A DNA stretch of 64,000 nt from Muricea muricata (Eukaryota > Cnidaria > Anthozoa > Malacalcyonacea > Plexauridae): positions 4,044,728-4,108,727 of the forward strand of contig OY979717.1 of assembly GCA_963855995.1 (NCBI GenBank), written 5' to 3'. Position 1 is the stretch's first letter, and each line of letters begins with the position of its first letter. The notes beneath the pieces were generated by a model. That model was not told where the DNA came from and ran no database searches. It was given only the letters and a program-made list of their open reading frames with translations. Shown here one piece after another: positions 19,888 through 64,000 of this stretch. The position numbers and the translations under genes are program-made.

Positions 19888-22800
19888 ATGACGAACACTC
19901 GGCCAAGAAGACCAGAAGTTCCTAACAAACCTTCAAGTATTCTTAACGAAAATGAAAACAACATTGTATTTGGTTTGTTAGGCAAGCGTTGTACGGTAAG
20001 ACACTGTCGTAACTAAAAATATATTCCTTCTAATTGGCGTTTACAAAAACCATTTTTATGTTTCCTGTATATTTTTAGACCCTCGCAACGTCTGTAGTTC
20101 AACTCTATCTGGCTTTATCTACCTCTCGAGACAGATGGACAAAGCAGCATTGTGGTGTGGCTTGTTTTGTCAAAGACAACAAAGAGAGATCATATTTTAT
20201 TCGAATTTTTCACCTCCAGGTATTATACTTCAATTCGCACACCGAGTTACTTCCTGAATTTGTTCTTTCGTTTATTTGAAACTACCAGCAGTCAATTATT
20301 GACAGTATTTTTCAGGTTAGTTTCTAGTCTTGACTTCAAGAGATGTGCAAAGTTTCTACGTATTTTACATGTATGGTAATCCTCCTAATGCATGAGCTAT
20401 GCAATTATTTAGCTGAGGCCAGTACCCAGTTTGCGTTCAGATATAGTGAACGCTATCTCCATGTTTGTGGGTAGTTTGTAACAGCCGAGATAGCATATTT
20501 TTATGTGAAAGCACAGTGACCAAACAACAGGATTGAAGCATGTTCAAGCAACAAAATATATTTGCCAAATTTTCAAAAATGATTGCACTTGAGGTGTTTA
20601 TCGGATCGGATTGAGCCTTTTCAATCCGACGGTTTACAAAATGTCTTATCCCAAATCCGATCCAATCCAAATTACAAATATAGGGTCCGATCCAATCTGA
20701 ACACTAGAGCTTGAATCCGATCCAATCCGAAAAAATACGATCAAATCTGAGGCGCCATTGACTTAAATTAATGTCAGCAAAGATAAAGTCATGTAACAGA
20801 ACAATGAACATCGGAATGTCTGTTGATGAAGTCACCACATGATGAAGTCTTACTCCTTGGTTCTTTTTGTCTGCATCAGTTGACTCTAAAGCCTCCCACG
20901 CACCACCTTTCATGAAGCTCTTGATACACAGGAGAGCATTCCTGTTTCTTAGTGTGCCTGATTCGTTCAGGTCCGAATAAAATACAACAAAAACTGGGTT
21001 TGCACAACTCTAGATTGCACAGTATTTCTACCTATTTTAAAACTGCAATAGCAACAAACATTCCCAAAGTTAGTTTGTCTGGTATAGATTTATAAATCAG
21101 GGGAAGGTGGTTACCGGAGGTATATACACCGTTTGCTAATAACAAAGTATATAGTGTCTCACAGTTAAAAAAATATTTTAAAAATGAGACAGTTATTAGG
21201 GGTTTTGTGAATTATTTAATTTTTTTGCAAGCAGAAACTATAAATTATGTATGATGATAACATATCAATAATAATGATCCAAGCTTCCACAACTTAGGAG
21301 TCCGAGAAAAGGTTCTTTCCTTAAATACTTTTATATATTTCTCATAAACTGGAAATACTTTGACTTATTTGCGTACCCGGTACACCAATTTCCACCAGCC
21401 CTCATGACTAAAAAGATCACTGTACAAAGTACTACTAATTTCTGTAGTATTGTGTTAAGCTTGAGTACAGTACAAAACATAATCCGAAGATTAGCATCTT
21501 GAAACCAAAAATATGAGTTAGCAAGAAAATTGAGTAAGTAATATTTCGATTTTATTACAAAATCATCATCAGACTAACTACAGTTACAATATATACAAGG
21601 TCTTATATGCAAGTTGGCATGCCATGATGACATCATAGAAACGGAAGCATCAATCAAAACCACGACATGTGCAGTGATACTTCTCACTGCACATGTTGTG
21701 GTTTTGATTGATGCTTCCGTTTCTATGATGTCATCATGGCATGCCAACTTGTATAGAAGACCTAGTATATATTGTAACTGTAGTTAGTCTGATGATGATT
21801 TTGTAATAAAATCGAAATATTACTTACTCAGTTTTCTTGCTTAACTCATATTTTTGGTTTCAAGATGCTAATCTTCGGATTATGTTTTGTGTTATATTTT
21901 TTGAAATTGTCGGCTAGTATTGGTTTTTGAGTACAGTATATAAGCATTATATAAGTGCCTGAAAATGCCAAACATACGTATTATTTCAATGGCACAGCAA
22001 ACCGTTGATGCTCCCCTTTACTACATTTTTAAATGAGTGGACGTCTATGCTTCTTTATTGAAGCCACCTACTTTCAAGGCAGTAGCTAGAATCTTAATGG
22101 GAAGGGGGGGATATTCATATATTTATGTTCTGCTTGATAAGTTTCTTTGAAATTGGATTTAGAGTGATCAATTTGAATTTGATTTAAAAAGAACTTGAAA
22201 TTTGATGGCAACATCTAATTTGCTTCTAAAGCTGAGATTTTTACTATTGCTGCAGGCAACACTAATTGTCATATGGTACCATAAATTTAAGTTGTTATGA
22301 TCAGCAATCTTTTATCCCTCATTGGTGGTACAAAAATTGTACTGTATGTAGAAAGATAAACGCATCTCTCCTGTTTACAAAGGATGATGCGCATACCAGT
22401 ATAGGGAAAATTGATGGTTATCTCATAGCAGTTGTAGGTAGGAAGTTTTGTATCCCGCTGTGAGGATCGCTTGGAAATTAAAGATTTACTGTAAACCTTC
22501 CTTGTGCAACTGAAATCTTGGGTGCCCAAGCACTAGAATCCAGCAGACCTAAATAATAAAGATTGCTCTTCTGGAGTGAACAGGCTAAAGCACAAGTGGT
22601 GCAAATGGTTCGTGTGTTGTGCCTCTCACCGCTGGTAGACCAAGTCTGGTGTGTGTTTAATATGAGTAGTGAATGACCTTTCTCCTTTTCTCTGAGAGTT
22701 TTTCCCTGCTAGGATGTACTCACACTCAAAATTATCATCAAAAAAATTATCAACACACTTGGGTAATAAAATTGAAGAAAGTTGTTGCAAAGGAGTTGTA

Positions 22801-25800
22801 GCCTTTGTAAGTGACTCCTGTATTTTATTGTTAGTCTCCTGTTAACATAGAATAGTCGGTCACAAATCTGTAAATTAAAACAAAAACAAAACTTATAATA
22901 AATATGAGAGCCCAACATATAACTTTTAATAAAGCCATGAGACAGTAAGATTTAAAATAATAAATTTTATTGGTAACGTTTCGTCTTTAACTTAAGACAT
23001 CATCAGACTAAATAGTATAAAATTACATGAGATTTGAATATATAATGTGCTAATTATTATGTATTTACAAGGTGTTATGTTACGTGGTAGTAAGGAAGAT
23101 AAAGGATAGGAGGGTGTAGGATAGTACATGACAGGAGGATACAGACAAAAGACGCAAAACAACAGATGATATATTAAAGAAGGTTAAGAGGAATAGAGCT
23201 GCCCTGGACGTTAAGACAGGGTTTGAGTTTAGATATAAGGAGGCTTTCGTGAATCATTAATTCACAAGAGTCGGAGGAAGAAGAGAGAATTTTGAAGTCA
23301 TCAAAGTTGGCAGAGTGACCTGTAGTGTTTAAGTGAGAAAATATACTAGACATAACTGGACTGGATGACGGTTTTCCAGTTATAGGAGTGATTTCTAAGT
23401 GTTCCAATATTCTGGTGTATCGACGTTACGTCGATGACTGTTTTCTTCTTTTCAGATCCTTGGACCATGTACCTCTTTTCCTCAACTATCTTAACCGCTA
23501 ACACCCTAACATTTCTTTTACATCCGAACTGGAAAAAGACGGCAAGCTTCCTTTTCTCGATGTTGAAATAACTCACTCAAACGGTAAATTTTCCAGCTCT
23601 GTTTACTGTAACCCACTTTCACCGCTCTCTTTGCTAACTTCCACAGCTTTATTCCTCTTGCTTACAAACGTTCTCTTGTCTCCTGCTTACTTCATCGAAT
23701 TTTCAACATCTGTTCCAGCTATGAAAACCTTCATATTCAGCTTGAAGTTGTTAGGAAACTGTTTAACTTGAATGGTTTCCCTGCACATGTTAGACCATCT
23801 TGTTCGTCGCTTCCTCAACAATATTTTCGAGCCTAAACCCGCTATTCACACGGTCCCTGAGAAAATGATCTATTTCTGCCTTCCTTTCACTGGCTCACAC
23901 TCTCTTCAAATTCGCACCCAAATCACTCGACTTTGCAATGCTGCTTATCCCCATCTTAACATTCGATTTGTTTTTCGCTCCTCTACATGCATCTCTTCTT
24001 TCTTTCCTTTTAAGGATAAAGTTCCAAAGTTTCTGAAATCGATGCTGTTCCGCGTCGTATCTGGGTCAAACCACGCGCCATTTACACACCAGAATATCGG
24101 AACACTTAGAAATCACTCCTGGAAAACCGTCATCCAGTCCAGTTATGTCCAGCATACTCTCTCACTTAAACACTACAGGTCACTCTGCCAACTTTGACGA
24201 CTTCAAAATTCTCTCTTCTTGTTCCGACTCTCGTGAATTAATGATTCACGAAAGCCTCCTTATATCTAAACTCAAACCCTCTCTTAACGTCCAGGGCAGC
24301 TCTATTCCACTTAACCTTCTTTAATATATCATCTGTTGTTTTGCGTCTTTTGTCTTTATCCTCCTGTCATGTACTATCCTACACCCTCCTATCCTTTATC
24401 TTCCTTACTACCACGTAACATAACACCTAGTAAATATATAATAATTAGCACATGTATATTCAAATCTCATGTAATTTTATACTATTTAGCCTGATGATGT
24501 CTTAAGTTAAAGACGAAACGTTACCAATGAAATTTATTGTTTTAAATTTTACTGCCTCATGGCTTGATTAAAAGTTATATGTTGGGCTCTCATATTTGTT
24601 ATAAGAATTCGGTTTCCGCCTGGCAAATCTCTAGCTACAAAAAACAAAACTGTAGTCGAAAGGAATCCCCTCTCCCTGTGTAGGGTCATAGTCTGGGTCT
24701 GAAATTTGTACTGAGTTATATGATATTGTTAGGCAAATTAGCCATATTTTTAACCATGGACATCATTATCATCAGTTGAAACAGACACAGTCGGCTATCA
24801 CACATGTCTTCGGCAACAACCATTCAGTGCAGTATAGAATTGTACGTATATCCGCATGCCCTCTGGTGAGAGTAAAATAATATATTACTGGTACAATCAC
24901 CTGCCCAAAAGCTGACCTTTTTAGGTGGCTGTCCAAATTTTAAGATGGTTGTCCAAGAGATGATCAGCTTACTCAGCTTGTCCATAGCGCTACTGGTGAA
25001 ATGACTTAATATCCAGTCCCTAACATTTCTGGCGGACTGACAAAAAAGTCTAACTCATGTCCACTCCCTGAGCCGTTACCAACGATAAATCGGAAAAGTT
25101 GGTTAAAGAAAGTCGGTTTTGCCTACATGAGAAATCTGGGAATTGCTACAGTCACTTTAATGAAATTATGAGTAAAGCTGGTAGTAGAATGTACATTCTT
25201 CGTGCTTACAAATATTACGCCTTTTCTAAAAAAGATTTGGATTTACTTTTCCACAGCCGTATGTTTCTGCTCTTGGTCTTTGGAATAGAAGTTTGGGGAT
25301 GTGCATCCCACAACAAATATTTGATTCAAATTGACGAATTTGTGTTTGAGTTTATTCAACGAGCATTTGAGTATTGTTGATATTATAAATACAGAGGATA
25401 AGAAGCTGTAGGACAAAATTTTATCCAACCCTAGTCATGCATAACGTTATAACCTTCTAAACGTAAATTACAATTGCGGGATCGAGGTCATGATTACGAA
25501 TTACCAAATATTCGAACGGAAAGGTTTAAGCGGGTTTTCTTAAACAGATGTCTTTTTAAATTTGTATAATTATGTTCTATGCACATTTCAAAAACTTGAT
25601 TATTTTATTCGCAAAAATTATGTAGTATAGTATATTTTAGTCGTATTAACTGTTAGGAACCTATTACTGTATGTAAGATAGCATATATTTTAACCTTATT
25701 GTAAATGACGTGTAAACTCACATATTTGCTGTGAGTATTCAATATATTAATAATAATAAGATTCAACTAGACCATTCATTCACAACAATCCTAAACGATT

Positions 25801-33872: not shown

Positions 33873-34239
33873 TGTTAGAATATATGCTCTGATATTCTAT
33901 AAGATATTTTTAGTTAATGTTTGACGACTGCTGCAATAAGCATTGGTAATATAATCATGTAATCTAAATAAAGAACACTTGAACTAAATAGTGAACATTC
34001 CATACCTATGATGCCATAGAGCTTAAATGTGTGTGAACCATATATGTGTAACCATGTAAGGAAAGTATGGTGAACTAAATATGCTACCAAGTAAGGAAAA
34101 GTATGTGTTGTAATAATACTCTACCATAGATAAACTCCTGTACATATAGAGAACACTTTTGTAAAATAAATATATTCTTCTGTGAAAACTCAACGGTGTA
34201 TGTTGTTGTATTAGAATGGCAACAGCTCAGAACTTAACA
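33873..34239 (+). repeat. 5' LTR of copia element
   Basis: 367 bp, TG...CA ends. The last 24 bp contain the Gag-Pol start codon (ATG 34216) and the first eight codons. AATAAA-like signals occur at 33967 and about 34166. Confidence 0.95.
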
Positions 34240-37200
34240 GGTTATGGGCCCAGGAAAGGACTAGTCTTCAATGGAGACGAAAGTAAATTCGAGTTGTGGG
34301 AAGTGAAGTTTTTGGGGCACATGAGACTCCAAAAGCTTTACGATATATTTATTCCTAGCCCCAGTGAAAAGGAGCTAGATGCAGCAAAGAATGCGGACGC
34401 ATTTGCTGAATTGGTCCAATGCCTGGATGACAGAAGTTTATCTCTCATAATTAGAGAAGCAAAAGATGACGGCAGAAAAGCCCTGGCTGTTCTTAGAGAA
34501 CACTATCAAGGTAAAGGGAAACCAAGGATCATTGCTTTATACACAGAACTGACTTCACTGAAGAAGGCAGAAAACGAAACGGCAACAGATTACATCATCC
34601 GCGCAGAAACTGCTGCAACAGCACTGAGGGCCGCTGAAGAAGTGATCAGCGATGGGTTGCTGGTCGCAATGGCACTAAAAGGCTTACCAAGCACGTATAA
34701 AACGTTTTCCACGGTCGTGATACAGAGAGAAAAGCCGATGACCTTCGCTGAGTTCAAGACGGCATTACGCAATTACGAGGAAAACGAAAAATGCGGCAAA
34801 GCAGCAGATAAAGATAACGTGATGAACGTGAGACAGAAATTCGACGGAAAATGCTTCACGTGCGAGAAGAAGGGGCACAAAAGTTCAGAATGTTGGATGA
34901 AAACCGAGAAATGGTGTACTTTGTGTAAGACTAAGACACACAGCACGAAGGACTGCAGAAAAAGAAAAGATGGCGCGAAGCTGGCGGCGGAGAAACGTGA
35001 GGATTCAAGAACATTTGTATTTGGACTGAAAGATAAAGGAAACAACCAAAATCGAGGTGAGATCAATCCAAACTTATTGATAGACACTGGAGCGACGAGT
35101 CATATAATTACCGATAGATCAATGTTTTTGAACTTTGACGAACAATTTGACCCTAGTAATCATTTCATTGAATTAGCTGATGGCAGTAAAGCCAATGTAG
35201 TTGTAGGACGTGGTAATGCTAAAGTTAAATTGTACGATATAAATGGTAGCGCACAAGATGTAATGTTAAATAACGCGCTATATATACCATCATATAAGCA
35301 AAATATTTTATCTGTACCTGCAGCCGTAAATGGGGGGGCTTCCATTAATTTAGACCAACAGGTAAGTCAGTATAAGGACGCCAATGGTAAGCTGTTTGAC
35401 ATAGAGCAGAGAGGTCGTTTATATTACTTAAATAGCTTATCTTCATCTAAAAATAGCGCTTCCTCAGTCATGGAGTGGCACAAGATTTTAGGCCATTGTA
35501 ATTTGAAGGATGTACGAAAGCTTCAGAGTGTAGTTGAGGGCATGAAAATCACAGATGATAAGGAAGTAGATTGTGAGGTCTGTACACAAGGAAAGATGTG
35601 TGAATTCAGAAACAGAAAGCCAGATCAGAGAGCAACAGACTCGCTAGATTTGGTGCACTGCGATTTAGCAGGTCCTATTGACCCCGTAGCAAGGGATGGA
35701 TTTAGATACGCTTTGTCATTTGTAGATGACTACACAGGTATTATTATGGTATATTTTTTGAAGCAAAAAAGCGATACCTTAGAAGCGACTGAAAAATTTC
35801 TGGCTGACGTCGCGCCGTTCGGCAAAGTTAAGCGCATTAGGAGCGACAATGGAACTGAGTTTACAGGTAAGTATTTCAAAGCATTGCTGCGTAGGAATTC
35901 GATTAGACACGAGACAAGCGCGCCGTATTCACCGCACCAAAACGGTACTGTCGAAAGAGCATGGCGGAGTTTGTTTAGCATGGCAAGATGCTTATTGATT
36001 GAAGCGAGTCTGCCCAAGGCATTATGGGCATACGCAGTGCTGGCATCCGCGTATATTAGAAACAGGTGTTTCAATGCAAGGCTTGAGAAAACTCCGTATG
36101 AAGCGCTAACAGGCAAGCAGCCTAACCTAAGTAGCATGCATGTTTTCGGTTCAACTTGTTTTGCTTATGTACAAAATGCAAAGAAATTAGATCCTCGCAG
36201 CCATAAGGGTATTTTCATAGGTTATGACAAAGAGAGCCCTGCGTATTTAGTATATTATCCGGAATCAAACAAAATCGAAAAGGTTAGGTGTGTAAAATTT
36301 ATTGATAAATTTGATACTGAAGATTCCCCCAGCTATCAGGATGATTTTACACTCAGTAGGGCTAAGGATCCTGTTCAATGTATGGAAAAAGAAATCAACA
36401 ATCTTGAAAATGTTAGCACGCCAGATAATGCACTGAGGAACACGGCTGAAAGTAGCAGTGAGATAAGATATCCAACTCGTACTCGCAATAGGCCAAACTA
36501 CTTTAGTGAACAAAAGGATGACAATGCAAATTACACTGTTGACTATTGCTATAGAGTTGCAAACATTCCACAATGTTACAAACAGGCCATAAATTCATCT
36601 GAGACAAATAAATGGCAAAAGGCCATGCAAGATGAGTTAGACGCATTACAAGATAATGAGACATTTGAGTTAGTCCCTGCCCCAATAGACCGTCAAGTAG
36701 TGGGGGGTAGATGGGTTTACGCAGTAAAAATAGGTCAAAATGGCGAAGAAACACATAAAGCAAGATATGTAGCAAAAGGATATTCTCAAATTCCGGAGAT
36801 TGATTATCAGGAAACATTTGCACCTACCGCACGCATGAGTTCAATCCGTATTTTATTACAACGTGCTGTCCAAAATGACATGAGAGTTCACCAAATGGAC
36901 GTCAAAACCGCATATTTGAACGCACCTATAGATTGCGATATCTATATGGAACAACCTGAAGGCTTTGAAAAACACGGTAAAAACGGTGAGAAATTAGTAT
37001 GCAAATTAAAGAAATCATTGTATGGGCTGAAACAAAGTGGTAGGAATTGGAATAACGTACTGCATGAATACTTGCACCAAGAAAAATTTGTCCAATCACT
37101 TGCAGATCCATGTGTGTATGTAAAAATGATAGACGCAAAAAGATGTGTAATCATAATTGTTTGGGTCGATGACATTATTATCGCAGCCAGTCATTTAGAG

Positions 37201-38124
37201 TTAGTGACGAGTGTTAAGGAATCTCTATGCAAGAGATTCAAAATGAAAGATTTAGGCGAACTGTCCTGGTTCTTAGGAACCGAATTTAAATGCCATGAAC
37301 AACACATTGAAATGAATCAGACGCAATACATTGAGAAAATTGTATCGAAATTTGGCATGACTGATTGTAAACCCAAACCGACTCCATGTATATTGGGAAT
37401 AGGTAAAATGAACGAACATTCACCCGAACTAGACGACCCACATATATATAGGGCCATAGTAGGCAGTTTGATTTATGTCATGACAGGAACAAGACCCGAT
37501 CTGTGTTATGTTGTAACCAAATTATCGCAAAACATGTCAAAGCCCACTCAAGCAAATCTTAATACGGCTAAGCACGTTTTAGGATATTTAAAAGGCACAA
37601 TTCATCAAGGCTTAGTATTTAACAAATCAGAATTACCTCTGAAACTAAGCGGATTTTGCGACGCTGACTGGGGATCTTCTACGGAAGATAGGCGCAGCAT
37701 AACAGGCTACAGCTTTCAATTATCCCAAACAGGGCCACTAGTATCTTGGAAGAGCCGTAAGCAACAAACTGTTGCATTATCAACATGCGAGGCTGAATAT
37801 ATTGCGCTTGCTAACGCTGCACAAGAGGCTATATTTCTGCGGCAATTATGTATAGACATGAAGGTAAGTATCAACGGGGATAGTGTACTTATACATGTAG
37901 ATAACCAGGGAGCTATTAACTTAGCTAAGAATCCAGTGCACCACCAGAGATCAAAGCATATTGATATAAAATATCATTTTATTAGATCAGAGATACAAAC
38001 AGGTAAGTTGAGCTTAAATTATGTCCCAACTGAGGAGAACCTAGCTGATATATTTACAAAGCCAGTGAGCAAAGGAAAGTTGAGTAAGTTTAGATCTGTA
38101 ATACTAGGGAAACAAATAGCGTAG
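34216..38124 (+). CDS. Copia Gag-Pol polyprotein, 1302 aa
   Basis: Single frame in the copia order Gag, protease, integrase, reverse transcriptase, RNase H. Gag has a CCHC knuckle near residue 213 (CFTCEKKGHKSSECW). Protease LLIDTGATSHII near 288. Integrase zinc site HKILGHCN ... CEVCTQGK near 422-460, with the DDE core at HCDLAGP, RSDNGTEF and HQNGTVERAW. RT motifs include HQMDVKTAYLNAPID and VWVDDII near 983. RNase H has SGFCDADWGSSTEDRRS, STCEAEYIAL and VDNQGAINLAKN. No stop or frameshift is present, and all the motifs I know are intact. The ATG lies inside the 5' LTR; the next in-frame ATG is at 34321. Its function is replication of the element. Confidence 0.95.
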   Translation: MATAQNLTGYGPRKGLVFNGDESKFELWEVKFLGHMRLQKLYDIFIPSPSEKELDAAKNADAFAELVQCLDDRSLSLIIREAKDDGRKALAVLREHYQGKGKPRIIALYTELTSLKKAENETATDYIIRAETAATALRAAEEVISDGLLVAMALKGLPSTYKTFSTVVIQREKPMTFAEFKTALRNYEENEKCGKAADKDNVMNVRQKFDGKCFTCEKKGHKSSECWMKTEKWCTLCKTKTHSTKDCRKRKDGAKLAAEKREDSRTFVFGLKDKGNNQNRGEINPNLLIDTGATSHIITDRSMFLNFDEQFDPSNHFIELADGSKANVVVGRGNAKVKLYDINGSAQDVMLNNALYIPSYKQNILSVPAAVNGGASINLDQQVSQYKDANGKLFDIEQRGRLYYLNSLSSSKNSASSVMEWHKILGHCNLKDVRKLQSVVEGMKITDDKEVDCEVCTQGKMCEFRNRKPDQRATDSLDLVHCDLAGPIDPVARDGFRYALSFVDDYTGIIMVYFLKQKSDTLEATEKFLADVAPFGKVKRIRSDNGTEFTGKYFKALLRRNSIRHETSAPYSPHQNGTVERAWRSLFSMARCLLIEASLPKALWAYAVLASAYIRNRCFNARLEKTPYEALTGKQPNLSSMHVFGSTCFAYVQNAKKLDPRSHKGIFIGYDKESPAYLVYYPESNKIEKVRCVKFIDKFDTEDSPSYQDDFTLSRAKDPVQCMEKEINNLENVSTPDNALRNTAESSSEIRYPTRTRNRPNYFSEQKDDNANYTVDYCYRVANIPQCYKQAINSSETNKWQKAMQDELDALQDNETFELVPAPIDRQVVGGRWVYAVKIGQNGEETHKARYVAKGYSQIPEIDYQETFAPTARMSSIRILLQRAVQNDMRVHQMDVKTAYLNAPIDCDIYMEQPEGFEKHGKNGEKLVCKLKKSLYGLKQSGRNWNNVLHEYLHQEKFVQSLADPCVYVKMIDAKRCVIIIVWVDDIIIAASHLELVTSVKESLCKRFKMKDLGELSWFLGTEFKCHEQHIEMNQTQYIEKIVSKFGMTDCKPKPTPCILGIGKMNEHSPELDDPHIYRAIVGSLIYVMTGTRPDLCYVVTKLSQNMSKPTQANLNTAKHVLGYLKGTIHQGLVFNKSELPLKLSGFCDADWGSSTEDRRSITGYSFQLSQTGPLVSWKSRKQQTVALSTCEAEYIALANAAQEAIFLRQLCIDMKVSINGDSVLIHVDNQGAINLAKNPVHHQRSKHIDIKYHFIRSEIQTGKLSLNYVPTEENLADIFTKPVSKGKLSKFRSVILGKQIA
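34240..34253 (+). other. Primer binding site, initiator tRNA-Met anticodon region
   Basis: GGTTATGGGCCCAG is the exact complement of the anticodon stem-loop of eukaryotic initiator tRNA-Met (CTGGGCCCATAACC). Drosophila copia is known to be primed by the 5' half of this tRNA, in the same way. The site starts at the first base after the LTR and lies within the coding frame (GYGPR). Confidence 0.85.
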
Positions 38125-42865: not shown

Positions 42866-44755
42866 CTAATCATCAGTTTGTGAAACATTTTCAGGCAATG
42901 TTATTCCCATTGAGCTGAGTATATTAGAAACAGGGCCAGGTAACCCTTCTTGCAATGAATAAGATTCCAAAAAATTTTGTACTAAATTCAAATCAATATC
43001 AACAGGTTTCATGGTGTCATCTGTTGTTTCAGCTGGACTTTTATCCTTGCTGTTACAAGATGTTTGCAATTCTTCATTCTTTGCTTTTACAAAACTTTTC
43101 CCAACATTTGATGATGAAAGTTCTTTATCCATTGCACAGCTGTACTCGTGGATAATTTCATCATCACAGGAATTACTGTGGTATGAGTCATCAGACTCAT
43201 CATCAGAAATTGCTTTATTCTCAATTTTCTTAGATGGCTTCATGAAAAACTGGTCCAAACACTTCATGAATCCTTCTGGATCAAACTGTATATCTGGTTC
43301 TTCACCTTGCTCCGGAGGAAACTCTGCACCTTCATAACTGGATATTGTCTCCACAAATGAGTTCATTCCATTAACAACTTTCCTCAAATCCATCTCCTCA
43401 CCAGCTGACAGACCAGCTTGACCATATTTAGACAAAATTGAGTCAAGTTCTTGGGGGGAAATCTCTAGCCAGCTTTCATTATCATCTGGGGGAAATACCT
43501 CTGGCTTACATTGATCTGATGAACTGTCAAGAACTGGCATATCTTTGAGTAACTGCTTTATTTCATTTGAATTATTTTGACTTTGTTCTGAATTTAAACA
43601 GATCTTAGTAAAATATTCTTTAGCACTTTCTAGAAGTTGGGTGTATAATTGGGATCCAACAACTTCATTTCGAAAGTATCCATGTTTAGTTAAAGCATCC
43701 AAGTACTTTTCCCATTGTTGATCATTAGTCGTGTTAGGCGGGGTTACTCCATTGGTATGACTACTTTGTTGGTTATATAGTATCTCAAAACCATATGTTA
43801 ACTGTAGACCAATTAAGTACCCCTTATATGCAGGACTTGAAACTTCAGGCAAAAATGTCATAGCACATTGGTCAGGAATGAAATTCTGCTTGACAAGTTG
43901 GCCATACAAACACTTAGTGAAGCGAGTACGATAAGGCACAAGTGAGACTGGACTAAAATGTGTCAGATTTTGGCACATTTTCATATCGACTGGATCACGG
44001 TTGACAAAAGCACAAATTGCAGGTGAAATTAGGGAATTCTTTGTTTCCAATAAATATTTCACACGAGGTGGAACATAACACAACACATTATGAAAACATT
44101 CTCGGGCTTTTTGTGGATACTCTTGAATTCTTTTCAAAATCGGATCTTGAATCCATGGCAATGCTATAGTTTTCCGCGCATTTGTTTTTAGAATTTCTAA
44201 TGCTTGAAAAATAGTAAGCTTTCCCGTGGGCAATTCGGTAATTTCTGACGGTTTACTGGGAAGTGGTATTATGTGAAAGCTTCCTTGATGGATGAAAACT
44301 CTATTGTCACTCGTGTCTGGCTCTAACCACTTTGGCAGATACTCAGCTGCTTCTATGAGCAAAAATTCACCATCATTGTCATTGACAGTGGCAAAGAGTT
44401 GAGGAAATTGTTTAGTAATGCTAAACAGCAAATACACTATAAACCATTCATCTTCGACATTAGCACCAAAGTTAGTGGAACCGCTCAGAAATTTAATCTG
44501 TTCCAAGTGTTCAATTTCTTTCGGTTTCGTCAGCTCTCGACATGTCAGATTAAAACAATCATTTTGCCAAATGTAATCACCGATAAGAGACTGTGCATAT
44601 GATAAAACCTCATACAATGTATCTTCGATATTCACAGTGTTTTTGCTGTTTTCAGCACCATCCCAGTGAATATTGTAGATTTTATACTCGACAACGTTCT
44701 CCAGTCGTAACTCTCCACTTGCCGTTAGATCTAGGAATTGCACATTGGCCGCCAT
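42866..44755 (-). CDS. ECD: Ecdysoneless homolog (ECD), intronless
   Basis: 629 aa in one exon (human 644 aa, multi-exon). ECD/SGT1 binds the R2TP chaperone complex and PRPF8, supports U5 snRNP assembly and splicing, and acts in cell-cycle control. Landmarks: YIWQNDCFNL near residue 60; VEDEWFIVYLLFSITKQFP near 100; DNDGEFLLIEAAEYLPKWL near 125; FTKCLYGQLVKQNFIPDQ near 280; GLQLTYGFEILYNQQ near 318; PPDDNESWLEISPQELDSIL near 425; acidic Ser-rich tail (ISDDESDDSYHS); VDIDLNLVQNFLESYSLQEG and MGITLPENV at the end, as in the family. The start ATG overlaps a YY1-like motif. The frame is fully open with no sign of decay, so it is probably functional. Lack of introns beside intron-rich neighbours suggests origin from a retrocopy or wholesale intron loss. 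Confidence 0.96.
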   Translation of the reverse strand: MAANVQFLDLTASGELRLENVVEYKIYNIHWDGAENSKNTVNIEDTLYEVLSYAQSLIGDYIWQNDCFNLTCRELTKPKEIEHLEQIKFLSGSTNFGANVEDEWFIVYLLFSITKQFPQLFATVNDNDGEFLLIEAAEYLPKWLEPDTSDNRVFIHQGSFHIIPLPSKPSEITELPTGKLTIFQALEILKTNARKTIALPWIQDPILKRIQEYPQKARECFHNVLCYVPPRVKYLLETKNSLISPAICAFVNRDPVDMKMCQNLTHFSPVSLVPYRTRFTKCLYGQLVKQNFIPDQCAMTFLPEVSSPAYKGYLIGLQLTYGFEILYNQQSSHTNGVTPPNTTNDQQWEKYLDALTKHGYFRNEVVGSQLYTQLLESAKEYFTKICLNSEQSQNNSNEIKQLLKDMPVLDSSSDQCKPEVFPPDDNESWLEISPQELDSILSKYGQAGLSAGEEMDLRKVVNGMNSFVETISSYEGAEFPPEQGEEPDIQFDPEGFMKCLDQFFMKPSKKIENKAISDDESDDSYHSNSCDDEIIHEYSCAMDKELSSSNVGKSFVKAKNEELQTSCNSKDKSPAETTDDTMKPVDIDLNLVQNFLESYSLQEGLPGPVSNILSSMGITLPENVSQTDD

Positions 44756-44758
44756 ATT
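44748..44758 (-). promoter_or_regulatory. ECD: YY1-like motif over the ECD start codon
   Basis: On the minus strand AATATGGCGGC fits the YY1 consensus AANATGGCGGC and includes the initiator ATG, giving the MAA start. YY1 sites at initiator codons are a known promoter class. The same block is found in three further copies (see the duplication entries). Confidence 0.45.
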
Positions 44759-44815
44759 GAATTTAATCGGACAAGAGCCTGGTAACGAGTTTAAAGATTT
44801 CCGTCAAAATCGCCA

Positions 44816-48800: not shown

Positions 48801-49021
48801 TTTTTTGGCTGATTCCAGAACTGATTCAGTTGCTCTTTATTTAGCCTGTTTAGAAGTGAATGAAAATAAGAAGTTCTTAAACAAGCAAGTGGAAGCACAC
48901 GATATAGCTCAGTGCTCTGACTTTTCAGATATGGCTTCGGAAGCTTTCAGAACTATAAAGTTTTTATTTCCTCCTTTTTTTAATATAAAGTGTTTTGTAT
49001 AACACATGCATCGCTCTGGAA
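45870..49021. other. Intergenic stretch between ECD and STK11
   Basis: No convincing gene. Notable items: AGATATATATATCTTATCT palindrome near 46378; a C-run near 47935; a plus-strand open stretch at 46933-47199 with a hydrophobic segment (FFAKFVITLVCLLTTLT) but no splice support; and repeats of ACACCAAGACACAAAAA at about 48352 and 48490. The block AACAAAAGGCAAATACAATG at about 48244 also occurs at about 5457. Confidence 0.35.
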
Positions 49022-58855
<9,834 letters not shown>

Positions 58856-60139
58856 GAATGACTTACTTTTAATATTTTTACAGAAGTAGCACCCACATAG
58901 ATCGGACGCAAATATATGTGATTTTAATTGCCCAGATGCTTCCGAGGATTGGAGAAAAATAGAAGGTTGAACATCCAAAATTCGCATCGGGTTGTCAAAT
59001 CGCGCCCGGTCTGTGTGTGTGGGTGTATGTGTGTGTGTGGGGGGGGGGGAGGGTCATCTTATGCGAGGCAATTTTTCTTGCAACTTGTAGTTGAGGTTGA
59101 GTGTTGTTTGCAGTGTGTCATGACAAAGGTAACCCAAAGATGTAAACAGTTTCAGATACTCAGTTAGTAAATTACCTTACAAATTTAGAAGTTAAAAATG
59201 TAAACAAAACGTTTTCTAACATTATCTAACCCCTCGTTAACATTGTCAATGTGGCCGATGTGATAGAGTATGTACGTGGATCTACACTTAATATGACTAG
59301 TTTGAATACAGCTAACAAAAGAAAGATAAATCTAGACTACATCACATCGTGGAGAATGACTGGGCTTAAATCAGAATTACGTTGCGAGTTGCAGCAACTG
59401 TTCCAGGCTTGAATTCGACGCGTGTATTCGTGTGTATAATTTCCAATCGAAATTAGAACACATTTATTACCCTTTAGAAATTAATTTAGAGATTTCTTTC
59501 GTTTTCTAGTGTTACCTCATTCATGTATCCATGGTAACAGGTAAATCTGTGGAAAGTGAGTGCATATGTTGGAGTGAACTGTTTTAATGAGAATAATACA
59601 TTATTTACAAGAATATAATGAAATATGAACCTCTTACTACAAGAGCTATAGCTTATAAAACGTTGCATTTAATTGTAGAAACTATTGTACATATTTGTTT
59701 AATAATTTATTTCTATTAGGTTAGTTTACGTAGGTATTTGCTTCCATTTCAGTGAGTATGAAGCTACAATAAGTGTTTTGTAATTGCTGCTATGAACAAA
59801 GGGTACCAGTGTTTGTGAGAAACCTATTGTTGAGGTATTGTTTTGGGTTCTTCTTTCATGTTGCGCGCATAAACGTTCCGTCTTTTATCACTGTCCTGAA
59901 TTCAAATGAGATCAAAGGCCATACTGTGAAGGAATAATCTCAATTTGTTTTATTGCTTAAAAAACAAACCACAGAACTGTTACTTGCCTTGTGCCACATA
60001 ATCAAGTGCAGATGAGGTCATCTTCACAACCACTCCTGAAACAGAGCAGCTACCACTGGAACAGTATATTTTAAGTGGTGGCGCGGCAAATTTCGATTCC
60101 GTAGACGGTCGGACACCTCCAAGATGGCCGACCACCTCA
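58856..60139. other. STK11 3' flank
   Basis: It presumably holds the STK11 3' UTR. A GT-rich run and ten-G run lie at 59015-59050. The block TTTCAGATACTCAGTTAGTA at about 59150 resembles one at about 47444. No gene seen. Confidence 0.35.
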
Positions 60140-60436
60140 TTGATACTTGCCGTTAGATCTAGGAATTGCACATTGGCCGCCATATTGAATTTAATCGCAC
60201 AAGAGCCTGGTAACGAGTTTAAAGATCAGGCATTCTTAATATTTATTACCATCAAAATTGGAAAAATAACTGACTTGTAATTGAACTCGAATTTAATACC
60301 GTGCCATGTTTCCATTATATATCAGAACAAATTTTGTATAATGTATATTAATATTGTAACAAATATTTTTATTTTTTTATTCATTTTTGCTAATTTGTTT
60401 GTTGCCACAAGTTTATCTATTTAGTGTCTATTAAAC
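60140..60436 (-). repeat. Duplicate of the ECD 5' region (left part)
   Basis: It matches ECD 44720-44805 and 44939-45150 closely, including the MAANVQFLDLTAS start codons on the minus strand. The copy lacks the 130-bp stretch 44806-44938 with the ETS sites. Beyond the 13th codon it leaves ECD (SINEVVGHLGGV), so it is not an ECD gene copy. Confidence 0.85.
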
Positions 60437-61190
60437 CATAGGCAGCCCAGGAACGCGGTGTTTTGTTTTGTTTTTATCGATGTGACGTATGCTTAATTAT
60501 AATTACCCTAAGGTAGGCAACTTCACACAAACTAACGATACATACACCTGTAAATAATCCGAAAATACTTCGCATATCTTTACAACTACGCTAAAATAAT
60601 AACAGAAATAAAATTTACGATATTTTTTGTATATACTCAGTGTATTTTAACTTGTGGAACAAGTTTGTAAAACGAGCAAAAATACGAAAAACGTCTGTAT
60701 ATTTGTTAAATTTTTGCATGGGACGATGCTGGATACGCTCTTGCCGCTTTTAACGACATTGCAAACAGTTTCAAAATACGAATTTGCAATCTCATTGGCT
60801 GTCAGGAAGAAGTCAAACTTGTACAGCCAATGAGATTGCAAATTCGTATTTTGAAACTGTTTGCAATGTCGTTAAAAGCGGCAAGAGCGTATCCAGCATC
60901 GTCCCATGCAAAAATTTAACAAATATACAGACGTTTTTCGTATTTTTGCTCGTTTTACAAACTTGTTCCACAAGTTAAAATACACTGAGTATATACAAAA
61001 AATATCGTAAATTTTATTTCTGTTATTATTTTAGCGTAGTTGTAAAGATATGCGAAGTATTTTCGGATTATTTACAGGTGTATGTATCGTTAGTTTGTGT
61101 GAAGTTGCCTACCTTAGGGTAATTATAATTAAGCATACGTCACATCGATAAAACAAAACAAAACACCGCGTTCCTGGGCTGCCTATGATT
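60435..61190. mobile_element. TTAA palindrome A, about 756 bp
   Basis: A near-perfect hairpin: it begins ACCATAGGCAGCCCAGGAAC after TTAA and ends GTTCCTGGGCTGCCTATGA before TTAA. The centre is at about 60810, with a loop of about 20 bp between copies of AGCCAATGAGATTGCAAATT and its inverse. It is noncoding; open frames on both strands are the same sequence. Confidence 0.85.
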
Positions 61191-61197
61191 AAACCAA

Positions 61198-62714
61198 TTA
61201 AACCACAGGCGGCCCAATTCAGTGTGTAGTTTCATATAGAGATCAGTAGCGAGCGGTAGCGAATTGTTTTACATATATAAAAGTACATAAGGTTGGCAAC
61301 TAAATTTCACCTGACGAACATATGACTTTTGTTAAACCACAGGCGGCCCAATTCAGTGTGTAGTTTCATATAGAGATCAGTAGCGAGCGGTAGCGAATTG
61401 TTTTACATATATAAAATACATAAGGTTGGCAACTAAATTTCAACTGACGAACATATGACTTTTGTTAAACACAAAATACATCGCTCGTGGAATTAAAAAC
61501 AGGTAAAAAATTATAACACGTTAATCTCCGATAATTTTACTACACATACTCAATGAAATTTGTCTTCAATGTTTCCGAATGGATGCAAAATTTGAACATA
61601 TTTTTCATGTATTGACAAAAAATTTCTTGTCCCCATGCGGGATGCCAGAGGTTGGCGTACACGTCAGCCTTTAAAATGCATTTATAAACTCCTATTGGTG
61701 CACTTTTAACGAAATATTCATTTAAACCAATAGGAGTTTATAAATGCATTTTAAAGGCTGACGTGTACGCCAACCTCTGGCATCCCGCATGGGGACAAGA
61801 AATTTTTTGTCAATACATGAAAAATATGTTCAAATTTTGCATCCATTCGGAAACATTCAAGACAATTTTCATTGAGTATGTGTAGTAAAATTATCGGAGA
61901 TTAACGTGTTATAATTTTTTACCTGTTTTTAATTCCACGAGCGATGTATTTTGTGTTTAACAAAAGTCATATGTTCGTCAGTTGAAATTTAGTTGCCAAC
62001 CTTATGTATTTTATATATGTAAAACAATTCGCTACCGCTCGCTACTGATCTCTATATGAAACTACACACTGAATTGGGCCGCCTGTGGTTAAACACAAAA
62101 TACATCGCTCGTGGAATTAAAAACAGGTAAAAAATTATAACACGTTAATCTCCGATAATTTTACTACACATATTCAATGAAATTTGTCTTCAATGTTTCC
62201 GAATGGATGCAAAATTTGAACATATTTTTCATGTATTGACAAGAAATTTCTTGTCCCCATGCGGGATGCCAGAGGTTGGCGTACACGTCAGCCTTTAAAA
62301 AGCATTTATAAACTCCTATTGGTGCACTTTTAACGACATATTCATTTAAACCAATAGGAGTTTATAAATGCTTTTTAAAGGCTGACGTGTACGCCAACCT
62401 CTGGCATCCCGCATGGGGACAAGAAATTTCTTGTCAATACATGAAAAATATGTTCAAATTTTGCATCCATTCGGAAACATTGAAGACAAATTTCATTGAG
62501 TATGTGTAGTAAAATTATCGGAGATTAACGTGTTATAATTTTTTACCTGTTTTTAATTCCACGAGCGATGTATTTTGTGTTTAACAAAAGTCATATGTTC
62601 GTCAGGTGAAATTTAGTTGCCAACCTTATGTACTTTTATATATGTAAAACAATTCGCTACCGCTCGCTACTGATCTCTATATGAAACTACACACTGAATT
62701 GGGCCGCCTGTGAT
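61198..62714. mobile_element. TTAA palindrome B2, interrupted by sibling B1
   Basis: B2 comprises about 61198-61332 and 62087-62714. It starts ACCACAGGCGGCCCAATTCA after TTAA and ends TGAATTGGGCCGCCTGTGA before TTAA. At about 61333 a nearly identical element is inserted at an internal TTAAAC. The inner core of B2 (from 62093) is itself palindromic around CCAATAGGAGTTTATAAATG. Confidence 0.8.
61333..62086. mobile_element. TTAA palindrome B1, nested in B2
   Basis: About 754 bp, same termini as B2, near-perfect palindrome centred at about 61715. It duplicates TTAA(AC) in B2 at both ends. It carries no plausible protein. Confidence 0.8.
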
Positions 62715-62836
62715 TAAACATGGACCATTCTACGTTGGAGTTGCTGCGGCGGAAGTGTTTCTTACTCGTGCTCAGGCCACAGGATGGCAAAAACCAATAT
62801 GGCGGCCAATGTGCAATTCCTATATCCATCCGCTTC
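62715..62836 (+). repeat. Duplicate of the ECD 5' region (right part)
   Basis: It continues the duplication (ACATGGACCATTCTACGTTG, matching 45151), then joins GTTGCTGC directly to GGCGGAAGTGTTTCTTACTC and TATGGCGGCCAATGTGCAAT. Relative to the original it lacks 45179-45323 and the hAT-like MITE. Confidence 0.85.
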
Positions 62837-62837
62837 T

Positions 62838-63168
62838 CTCATTGATCTCGTTTCCCAGCCTATGTGTCTGATAAAACTAATAGATTTTTCTTTTTGAAAT
62901 TTTTAATAATCCAATCCCTGACCCAAACCCTAAACCTACTTTTGCAAAAATCGCATAAAAGTAAAAAAACATAAAAAAAAAAGTTTGATGAACGTTAGAA
63001 ATAAAAAAAACCTCGGATGGGATTCGAACCCCTGCCCAACTGTTAGAACTCGCACGCCAAGACGACTGAGCTAACAACGAGCTTGCTGGAAACCGTCGAA
63101 ACAATTTGTATTTATAATACAACTTCTTCTAAATGAGCCTAAGCAGTCTGGGAACGAGATCAATAAGG
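62838..63168. repeat. Foldback repeat with tRNA-like core
   Basis: ATTGATCTCGTTTCCCAG at 62841 is mirrored by CTGGGAACGAGATCAAT at about 63151. The interior holds a tRNA-like sequence on the minus strand (63008-63080). Confidence 0.55.
63008..63080 (-). tRNA. tRNA-like sequence, probably SINE head or pseudogene
   Basis: On the minus strand TTAGCTCAGTCG fits the internal A box and GGGTTCGAATCCC the B box, with spacing near that of a tRNA. The acceptor stem pairs poorly (5' CTCGTTG against 3' ATCCGAG) and the anticodon arm is unclear, so a functional tRNA is unlikely. Confidence 0.4.
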
Positions 63169-64000
63169 TGCTCGACCATCTGGGAGGTGTCCGACCGTCT
63201 AATTACGGAATCGTAATAAGCGGTGGCGCGTGGGGTGGCCCGAATAATTGTGAAAAGCCAGCTCAGCGTTAAATTGGCCAAAAAAGGCAATTGACTGGCC
63301 AGAATCGGGCCATCTGCATAATTAATGACATGCGTAATGCGACATGCGCGAATCAATTTGCACATCCTAGCTATAGTACAACAGGCATGACAATACTACA
63401 AAAATTCAGATGACTGTTGCTATACCATTACAAAAAACTCTGTATAATTGTTGTCAATGTAGTACTAGTACACGCGTTTGATCTATATGTCATCAATGTT
63501 TTGCTGAAGAATATTGCCGCAAAAAAGCCAGCATAATTTGGTCGCAGTCGTCAAGACTAGGTAAAAACGAGTCAAGGAAGTCTATGAACGTAGTTGATAA
63601 AATTTTTCCCCACCTAAACATTCCATAACTATTCTCAAAATATGATTTATTGTTCACGAGAAAATTTCAGCTTTAGTTCTTAGTCAATTTGCCGAATCAA
63701 TCTCGTTTTCTTGGGCCTGACTTTCCAGTCGATACTTTCTCGTGTTTTTCAGTGTGGGCAAACTAGGCAATATGTGGCGAGAAACATTGGGTCGCCGAGT
63801 GTTAAAATATTGCTGGCGCTTTCACGAAGCTTAAAACATTGCTTGCATATATCCCTAATATGTGAATATGAATACTTATCTACCAAAATGTTGTTGAATT
63901 TGTTGGGAAACATTTTTGCTTTCGGCGTAACAAATTTTGTTTCCTGGCAAACAGGAAAAGATTTGACAATAAAAAGCACGTTGTTTCATTATAAATTGAA
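63169..64000. other. Window end, no gene seen
   Basis: The segment about 63225-63320 (AGCCAGCTCAGCGTTAAATT, GGCAATTGACTGGCCAGAAT) resembles, inverted, about 31430-31520, so a dispersed repeat is likely. Nothing else recognised. Confidence 0.35.

What the first reader, a model, noticed from the sequence alone, without database searches (positions are those of the whole stretch)
60435..62714. Three generations of giant TTAA palindromes nested in one another
Palindrome A (about 756 bp) abuts palindrome B2, and B2 contains a full sibling B1 (about 754 bp) at an internal TTAA. All have termini of the form ACCAYAGGCRGCCC after TTAA, arms of about 370 bp that match almost perfectly, tiny loops and no protein. 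Such long, well-matched hairpins of nearly equal length in two sequence families suggest a shared mobilising enzyme and a hairpin-dependent way of spreading. The TTAA target hints at piggyBac, but these TIRs do not resemble the usual CCC-type ends.
Basis: partly seen in the sequence, partly recalled or inferred. Interest (0 to 1): 0.8.

Follow-up and report, generated by a model that had tools for sequence, protein, structure and literature searches.

The report
Palindromic transposons with 7-bp target duplications
The three giant palindromes are jumping-gene fragments without proteins that duplicate a 7-base target, not TTAA, and whose two mirror halves are kept nearly identical to each other, which makes the old question of how foldback transposons stay palindromic testable.

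Summary
The palindromes are real: A is 60437-61187, and B1 (61338-62087) sits inside B2 (61204-62712). The TTAA reading is wrong. Of 42 copies, 35 had both ends readable. The element is CAYAGGCRGCCC...GGGCYGCCTRTG, flanked by exact 7-bp duplications in 26 of 35 and 8-bp in 2. TTAA lies in 4 of those 26, three of them the window's own. So this is neither piggyBac nor a joining artefact.

The terminus occurs 1,850 times, against 17 for the reversed control. Elements of 13.8-18.6 kb with the same ends carry a PIF1 helicase. In one, a 7-bp duplication and inverted repeats reaching about 2.1 kb were read. They are the best partner candidate, but no transposase was found.

The notable result is that the arms are homogenised. 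Differences between B copies are mirrored in both arms (7.5 per pair) and almost never follow one side (0.06). Palindromic derivatives were also read in two transposon families with other ends and other duplication lengths, so palindromy looks like a habit of this genome rather than one enzyme's signature. The closest known element is Drosophila Galileo, whose two-TIR copies already show 98-100% identical TIRs.

The parts
60430..60436 (.). left 7-bp target duplication of A (ATTAAAC)
60437..61187 (.). palindrome A, CATAGGCAGCCC...GGGCTGCCTATG, 751 bp
61188..61194 (.). right 7-bp target duplication of A (ATTAAAC)
61197..61203 (.). left 7-bp target duplication of B2 (ATTAAAC)
61204..61337 (.). 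palindrome B2, first part (its last 7 bases are the left target copy of B1)
61331..61337 (.). left 7-bp target duplication of B1 (GTTAAAC)
61338..62087 (.). palindrome B1, CACAGGCGGCCC...GGGCCGCCTGTG, 750 bp, nested in B2
62088..62094 (.). right 7-bp target duplication of B1 (GTTAAAC)
62095..62712 (.). palindrome B2, second part
62713..62719 (.). right 7-bp target duplication of B2 (ATTAAAC)
60510..60522 (+). AAGGTAGGCAACT, subterminal motif shared by A and B arms (possible enzyme binding site; also 61103-61115, 61289-61301, 61422-61434, 61991-62003, 62615-62627)
   Evidence: 6 matches, shuffle mean 0.22; the binding role is inferred

Best explanation
A, B1 and B2 are non-autonomous, nearly perfect palindromic DNA transposons (foldback-like MITEs). 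An enzyme that recognises CAYAGGCRGCCC ends and cuts a palindromic RTnnnAY target with a 7-bp stagger moves them in trans. SHOWN: ends, 7-bp duplications, dispersed copies, nesting, and ends shared with a 13.8-18.6 kb family that carries a PIF1 helicase. INFERRED: that this large family or a relative supplies the transposase (none found). SHOWN: differences inherited by B copies sit in both arms, so the amplifying copies are made symmetrical again and again; many further differences are private to one arm. INFERRED: the rewriting is arm-to-arm copying (gene conversion or fold-back synthesis at a cruciform, stalled fork or gapped intermediate). INFERRED: palindromes arise through the same kind of repair, acting on several transposon families of this genome.
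For: 7-bp duplications exact in 26 of 35 (2 more 8 bp, 2 more 7 bp with one mismatch, 5 none); target R 22 of 26, T 18, A 21, Y 19 at positions 1, 2, 6, 7; terminus 937 + 913 places against 14 + 3; empty site of B1 in the mirror arm of B2. Partner: C1:14474481-14491381 has the ends, duplication GTTATAT, a PIF1 frame (PF05970, 9.6e-26) and inverted repeats at 99.3% over 761 and 99.2% over 393 bases, reaching about 2.1 kb from the end. The same ends pair around 4 of 6 PIF1 copies of 92-100% identity and stand on one side of the other 2. Two more distant PIF1 places lie 2.5 and 4.3 kb from a listed terminus (C1:30387996, C1:38831389). Homogenisation: 7.5 mirrored against 0.06 side-linked differences per pair (29 B copies, 406 pairs); partner arms 1.46% apart against 3.46% for shuffled partners, 0 of 10,000 shuffles (28 copies); third base agrees at both ends in 27 of 28, 17.0 expected. 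Other palindrome families.
Against: No transposase was found in the large copies; only about 8.2 of 16.9 kb of one copy was read, and part of that is another insertion. The 7-bp duplication of a large PIF1 copy was read once. The single terminus beside the C9 PIF1 copy is 14.1 kb away, against about 9.4 kb in four other copies. 38 of 141 allele states shared by 3 or more copies are one-arm; states shared by two copies are more often one-arm (23) than both-arm (11); only 18 of 56 arms have their own partner as strictly nearest (10 ties); in family A (5 copies) 185 of 10,000 shuffles reach the observed value.
Confidence: 0.65

Rival explanations
1. TTAA-targeting piggyBac derivatives.
For: TTAA stands at all three window insertions, and piggyBac-type genes are plentiful in this genome (117 matches).
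Against: Duplications are 7 bp and only 4 of 26 contain TTAA. No piggyBac match among those listed lies inside the large same-ended copies (116 of 427 candidates scored).
Confidence: 0.01
2. Galileo-like members of the P superfamily, moved by a P-type transposase not yet seen.
For: 7-bp (rarely 8-bp) duplications, a palindromic GT...AC-like target, kilobase TIRs, protein-less two-TIR copies, as printed for Galileo. P-type genes are very common here (150 of 338 and 150 of 565 candidates scored). Two distant PIF1 places have a P match 5.8 and 11.4 kb away (C3:44.97 Mb, C1:36.38 Mb).
Against: No P match listed lies inside the six PIF1 elements (scored in part only). Of 30 P loci with 1.5 kb on each side, none had the terminus with 0-1 mismatches and 3 had it with 2 (L066, L073, L074). 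The P palindromes read here have ends CACTGACCTG and 8-bp duplications, 2 of 2 loci.
Confidence: 0.35
3. Relatives of KDZ (Kyakuja-Dileera-Zisupton) transposons.
For: A KDZ element here makes 7-bp duplications (3 of 3 copies with both ends found; in a fourth the right end was not found) and its ends begin with CA.
Against: Its ends are CACCCGTCT; it is only a guest in a B-type element. 12 left-end windows of other KDZ copies lack the terminus. No KDZ match lies inside the PIF1 elements, 132 of 132 candidates scored.
Confidence: 0.1
4. Assembly artefacts from joining of haplotypes or inverted reads.
For: Long palindromes are a known artefact class (recalled).
Against: Exact duplications around copies with differing flanks on 11 contigs, and a clean nested empty site.
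Confidence: 0.02
5. Hairpin-dependent spreading: each move passes through a fold-back stage that rewrites one arm from the other.
For: Mirrored differences dominate and side-linked ones are nearly absent.
Against: The same pattern follows from occasional gene conversion in a few source copies. Same-ended elements of other structure also spread. One-arm alleles shared by several copies exist.
Confidence: 0.2

Closest known systems
Galileo, two-TIR and recombinant-TIR copies (P superfamily, Drosophila)
   Same: 7-bp and rarely 8-bp duplications, palindromic target (GTANTAC, GTATTAC), very long TIRs, many protein-less two-TIR copies, TIRs of one copy 98-100% identical, TIR-copying repair proposed by its authors (passages of PMC3573991 and PMC4168063)
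   Different: Different terminal sequence; compact and nearly loop-less here; no P transposase found with these ends; the partner carries a PIF1 helicase
Foldback-like elements and palindromic MITEs in general
   Same: Non-autonomous, under 1 kb, long inverted arms, tiny centre
   Different: 7-bp duplication; arm homogenisation counted across copies here
piggyBac MITEs
   Same: TTAA next to the three window copies
   Different: 7-bp duplications, TTAA in only 4 of 26
KDZ / Zisupton
   Same: This genome's KDZ family also makes 7-bp duplications, with ends beginning CA
   Different: Other ends; seen only as a guest; Zisupton is reported with 8-bp duplications (passage of PMC12730594)

Membership tests
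piggyBac | TTAA target, duplicated as 4 bp | tested here: not met
   7-bp duplications; TTAA in 4 of 26
P superfamily (Galileo type) | 7-8 bp duplication | tested here: met
   26 of 35 exactly 7 bp, 2 exactly 8 bp
P superfamily (Galileo type) | palindromic GT...AC-like target | tested here: met
   RTnnnAY in 26 duplications, weaker than the printed GTANTAC
P superfamily (Galileo type) | P-type transposase in an element with the same ends | tested here: inconclusive
   none listed inside six PIF1 copies, but 150 of 338 and 150 of 565 candidates scored, and the copies only partly read
KDZ | KDZ transposase in an element with the same ends | tested here: not met
   132 of 132 candidates scored, none inside the PIF1 copies; the one inside a B-type element is a guest
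hAT | hAT dimerisation domain in an element with the same ends | tested here: inconclusive
   none listed inside the PIF1 copies, 150 of 1,175 candidates scored
MITE / foldback-like element | short, protein-less, inverted arms, target duplications, many copies | tested here: met
One superfamily for A, B and the PIF1 elements (Repbase rule) | same duplication length and first 11 bases with at most 1 mismatch | tested here: met
   CATAGGCAGCC, CAYAGGCGGCC, CATAGGCGGCC; 7 bp in A and B and in one PIF1 copy; the rule is given for non-autonomous elements (PMC4455052 passage)

The most novel reading that the evidence does not exclude
The CAYAGGC-ended elements are a new transposon superfamily: 14-kb elements with kilobase inverted repeats and a PIF1 helicase, whose palindromic derivatives pass through a fold-back DNA stage at each round of amplification, so that one arm is rewritten from the other every time.
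Probability: 0.12. Interest if true: 0.85.

Novelty: new variant of a known kind. Interest (0 to 1): 0.5.

Why it matters
Why the arms of foldback transposons stay almost identical has mostly been argued from individual copies. Here a family with about 1,850 terminus hits gives a countable signal: inherited differences are mirrored in both arms, many private ones are not. Palindromic derivatives were also read in two other transposon families of this genome, with other ends and with 8- and 9-bp duplications, which points to a host repair process rather than a special transposase and can be tested by a census. The PIF1-bearing elements with the same ends may be an undescribed autonomous lineage. 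Galileo authors had already noted 98-100% identical TIRs within a copy and proposed repair copying, so the idea is not new; the mirrored-allele count is the addition.

Tried and rejected
1. TTAA as target: rejected.

2. KDZ as partner: the 14.5-kb element C1:11473085-11487583 has matching 7-bp duplications and holds a KDZ match, and I first took it for the autonomous element. 12 left-end windows of other KDZ copies lack the terminus, and the KDZ element proved to be a 13.9-kb guest with its own ends and duplication. My first predictions of three KDZ right ends missed; two of three were found at a second try.

3. The 4,438-bp element C1:8584255-8588692: a 759-bp B-type palindrome with a 3,670-bp guest palindrome that makes a 9-bp duplication.

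4. P, hAT and piggyBac as partner: nothing listed inside the large copies, candidates scored in part only, so P and hAT stay open.

5. tblastn of P and KDZ frames against the PIF1-family pieces: chance-level hits only. Pfam on five other frames of that element: no match with E below 0.1. L134 is largely another inserted element with 200-bp inverted ends. Pfam and PHROGs on the RING-gene frames: no convincing family apart from a weak RING match.

6. Literature: searches were seen as listings; passages were seen in PMC3573991, PMC4168063, PMC12730594, PMC9297572, PMC3706591 and PMC4455052. I saw no account of CAYAGGC-ended 7-bp palindromes, but Repbase and most subscription journals were not searchable.

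Full report
WHAT IS THERE. The window is C2:4044728-4108727 of a 453-Mb genome held without a name. Searches confirm three palindromes of about 750 bp: B1 sits in the left arm of B2, and A lies next to B2. To define the element I fetched 39 further regions on 11 contigs, chosen from the places listed (40 of 1,197 candidate spots scored), and compared their ends with the 3 window copies.

ENDS AND TARGET. Of these 42 copies, 35 had both ends readable; 7 were dropped (L033, L036, L039, L042, L043, L044, L047). Two regions, L011 and L031, hold a second copy that was not analysed. The element is CAYAGGCRGCCC...GGGCYGCCTRTG. Direct duplications are exactly 7 bp in 26 of 35, exactly 8 bp in 2, 7 bp with one mismatch in 2, and absent in 5. 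The 35 include L037 and L038, which have the same flanks as printed, and L025 and L026, whose flanks are related; L038 was dropped from later counts and L026. In the 26 exact cases the target reads R-T-n-n-n-A-Y (22, 18, 21 and 19 of 26), with weaker matching preferences outside it. TTAA lies inside 4 of 26, three of them the window's own. B1 supplies its own empty site: the mirror arm of B2 carries GTTAAAC once, the interrupted arm twice. An A copy sits inside a B copy at C2:45.47 Mb.

HOW MANY. CAYAGGCRGCCCA occurs 937 + 913 times against 14 + 3 for the pattern read backwards. Among the 100 places listed, neighbouring opposed ends pair by my reading as elements of about 118-176, 479, 521, 660-760 bp, and 1.8, 4.4, 14.5, 16.9 and 17.4 kb; the last five have matching 7-bp duplications. 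Other subterminal families share the ends, for example many pairs of 1.1-1.9 kb starting CACAGGCGGCCCAAAC (100 of 206 places listed). A and B arms are colinear relatives by global score (86 against 1 +/- 14, 0 of 300 shuffles) but not by best local score (29 of 300). Both carry AAGGTWGGCAACT at about position 74-88.

TWO FALSE PARTNERS. The 14.5-kb element contains a KDZ transposase match. It is a guest: a 13.9-kb KDZ element with ends CACCCGTCTCACG and its own 7-bp duplication, while 12 left-end windows of other KDZ copies lack the CAYAGGC terminus. The 4,438-bp element contains mirrored pieces of an unknown gene with a RING-like end. That too is a guest: a 3,670-bp palindrome (arms 1,604 bp at 99.25%) with a 9-bp duplication, inside a 759-bp B-type palindrome.

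THE LIKELY PARTNER. C1:14474481-14491381 has ends CATAGGCGGCCCAAATCTTGG, duplication GTTATAT and a PIF1 helicase frame (PF05970, 9.6e-26). The stretch sampled near its right end matches the left end, inverted, at 99.3% over 761 and 99.2% over 393 bases, out to about 2.1 kb from the terminus. Six PIF1 copies are 92-100% identical. The same ends pair around four of them, giving 13.8-18.6 kb, and stand on one side of the other two. The distance from PIF1 to the far end is about 9.4 kb in four copies, 12.4 kb in the copy read and 14.1 kb in the C9 copy. Two more distant PIF1 places lie 2.5 and 4.3 kb from a listed terminus. A B-type palindrome is inserted in the 5' part of the C2:51.3 Mb copy. No transposase was found inside these copies among the listed matches for KDZ (132 of 132 candidates scored), P (150 of 338 and 150 of 565), hAT (150 of 1,175) or piggyBac (116 of 427).

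ARMS ARE HOMOGENISED. Between B1 and B2 four differences appear in both arms and three in one arm. Over 29 B copies (406 pairs) there are 7.5 mirrored differences per pair, 9.5 confined to one of four arms, and 0.06 that follow the side. With 28 copies the two arms of a copy differ by 1.46% on average, against 3.46% for shuffled partners (0 of 10,000 shuffles); same-side and opposite-side arms of different copies are equally distant (3.52% and 3.53%). The third base of the two ends agrees in 27 of 28 copies, 17.0 expected. Against this: 38 of 141 allele states shared by three or more copies are one-arm, states shared by two copies are 23 one-arm to 11 both-arm, only 18 of 56 arms have their own partner as strictly nearest (10 ties), and family A with 5 copies is weaker (185 of 10,000). 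The simplest reading is that source copies are made symmetrical repeatedly and inserted copies then collect private changes. Gene conversion and fold-back synthesis are not separated by these data.

NOT ONE ENZYME'S SIGNATURE. P-type palindromes with ends CACTGACCTG occur at three loci. Arms of 1.84 kb at 99.8% were measured in one; 8-bp duplications were read at both loci where both ends were held. The RING-gene family shows 40 pairs of opposed copies roughly 1-2 kb apart among 150 listed matches (my count from the list); only one of these palindromes was read in full. So three families with different ends and 7-, 8- and 9-bp duplications have palindromic derivatives.

COMPARISON. In duplication length, target, long TIRs and protein-less two-TIR copies this works like Galileo of Drosophila. 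Its authors report TIRs of one copy 98-100% identical and propose repair copying (passages of PMC3573991 and PMC4168063). Membership in the P superfamily is not established: no P transposase was seen with these ends, and the P palindromes read here use 8 bp and other ends. By Repbase's printed rule for non-autonomous elements (PMC4455052 passage), A, B and the PIF1 family belong together. piggyBac is rejected.

Noticed in passing
window 34186-38124 (+): Intact 1,312-aa frame that reads like a Copia-type gag-pol polyprotein (recalled motifs).
   Followed up: no
window 49974-51289 and 22892-24605: Two larger inverted repeats (472-nt arms at 99%; 335-nt arms at 96% plus 151 nt at 95%), the first with a 293-aa frame that resembles a Penelope-like element end (recalled).
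   Followed up: no
window 21520-21841: Small palindrome, 158-nt arms at 97%, 6 nt between them.
   Followed up: no
window 60102-60192 and 62790-63201: Older, weaker inverted repeats bracket the whole cluster (43 nt at 91%, 56 nt at 80%), perhaps an older element that hosts it.
   Followed up: no
window 63010-63090: tRNA-like fragment by eye, perhaps a SINE; ARAGORN reports no tRNA in the window.
   Followed up: partly
window 42866-44803 (-) and 48989-49378 (+): Frames that look like ecdysoneless/SGT1 and the start of STK11/LKB1 (recalled), which suggests an animal genome.
   Followed up: no
L070-L076 (C3:12.96 Mb, C3:36.96 Mb, C11:5.88 Mb): P-type palindromes carrying mirrored transposase pieces, ends CACTGACCTG, 8-bp duplications.
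   Followed up: partly
L095, L108, L096 (C1:8584255-8588692): Guest palindrome with mirrored pieces of an abundant gene with a RING-like end, 9-bp duplication; no convincing Pfam or PHROG family.
   Followed up: partly
L103, L104, L109-L127 (C1:11.47 Mb and other places): 13.9-kb KDZ element with several near-identical copies and 7-bp duplications in 3 of 3 copies with both ends found.
   Followed up: partly
window 181, 331, 430: Three one-mismatch hits to the terminus (CATAGGTAGCCC) at the start of the window.
   Followed up: no
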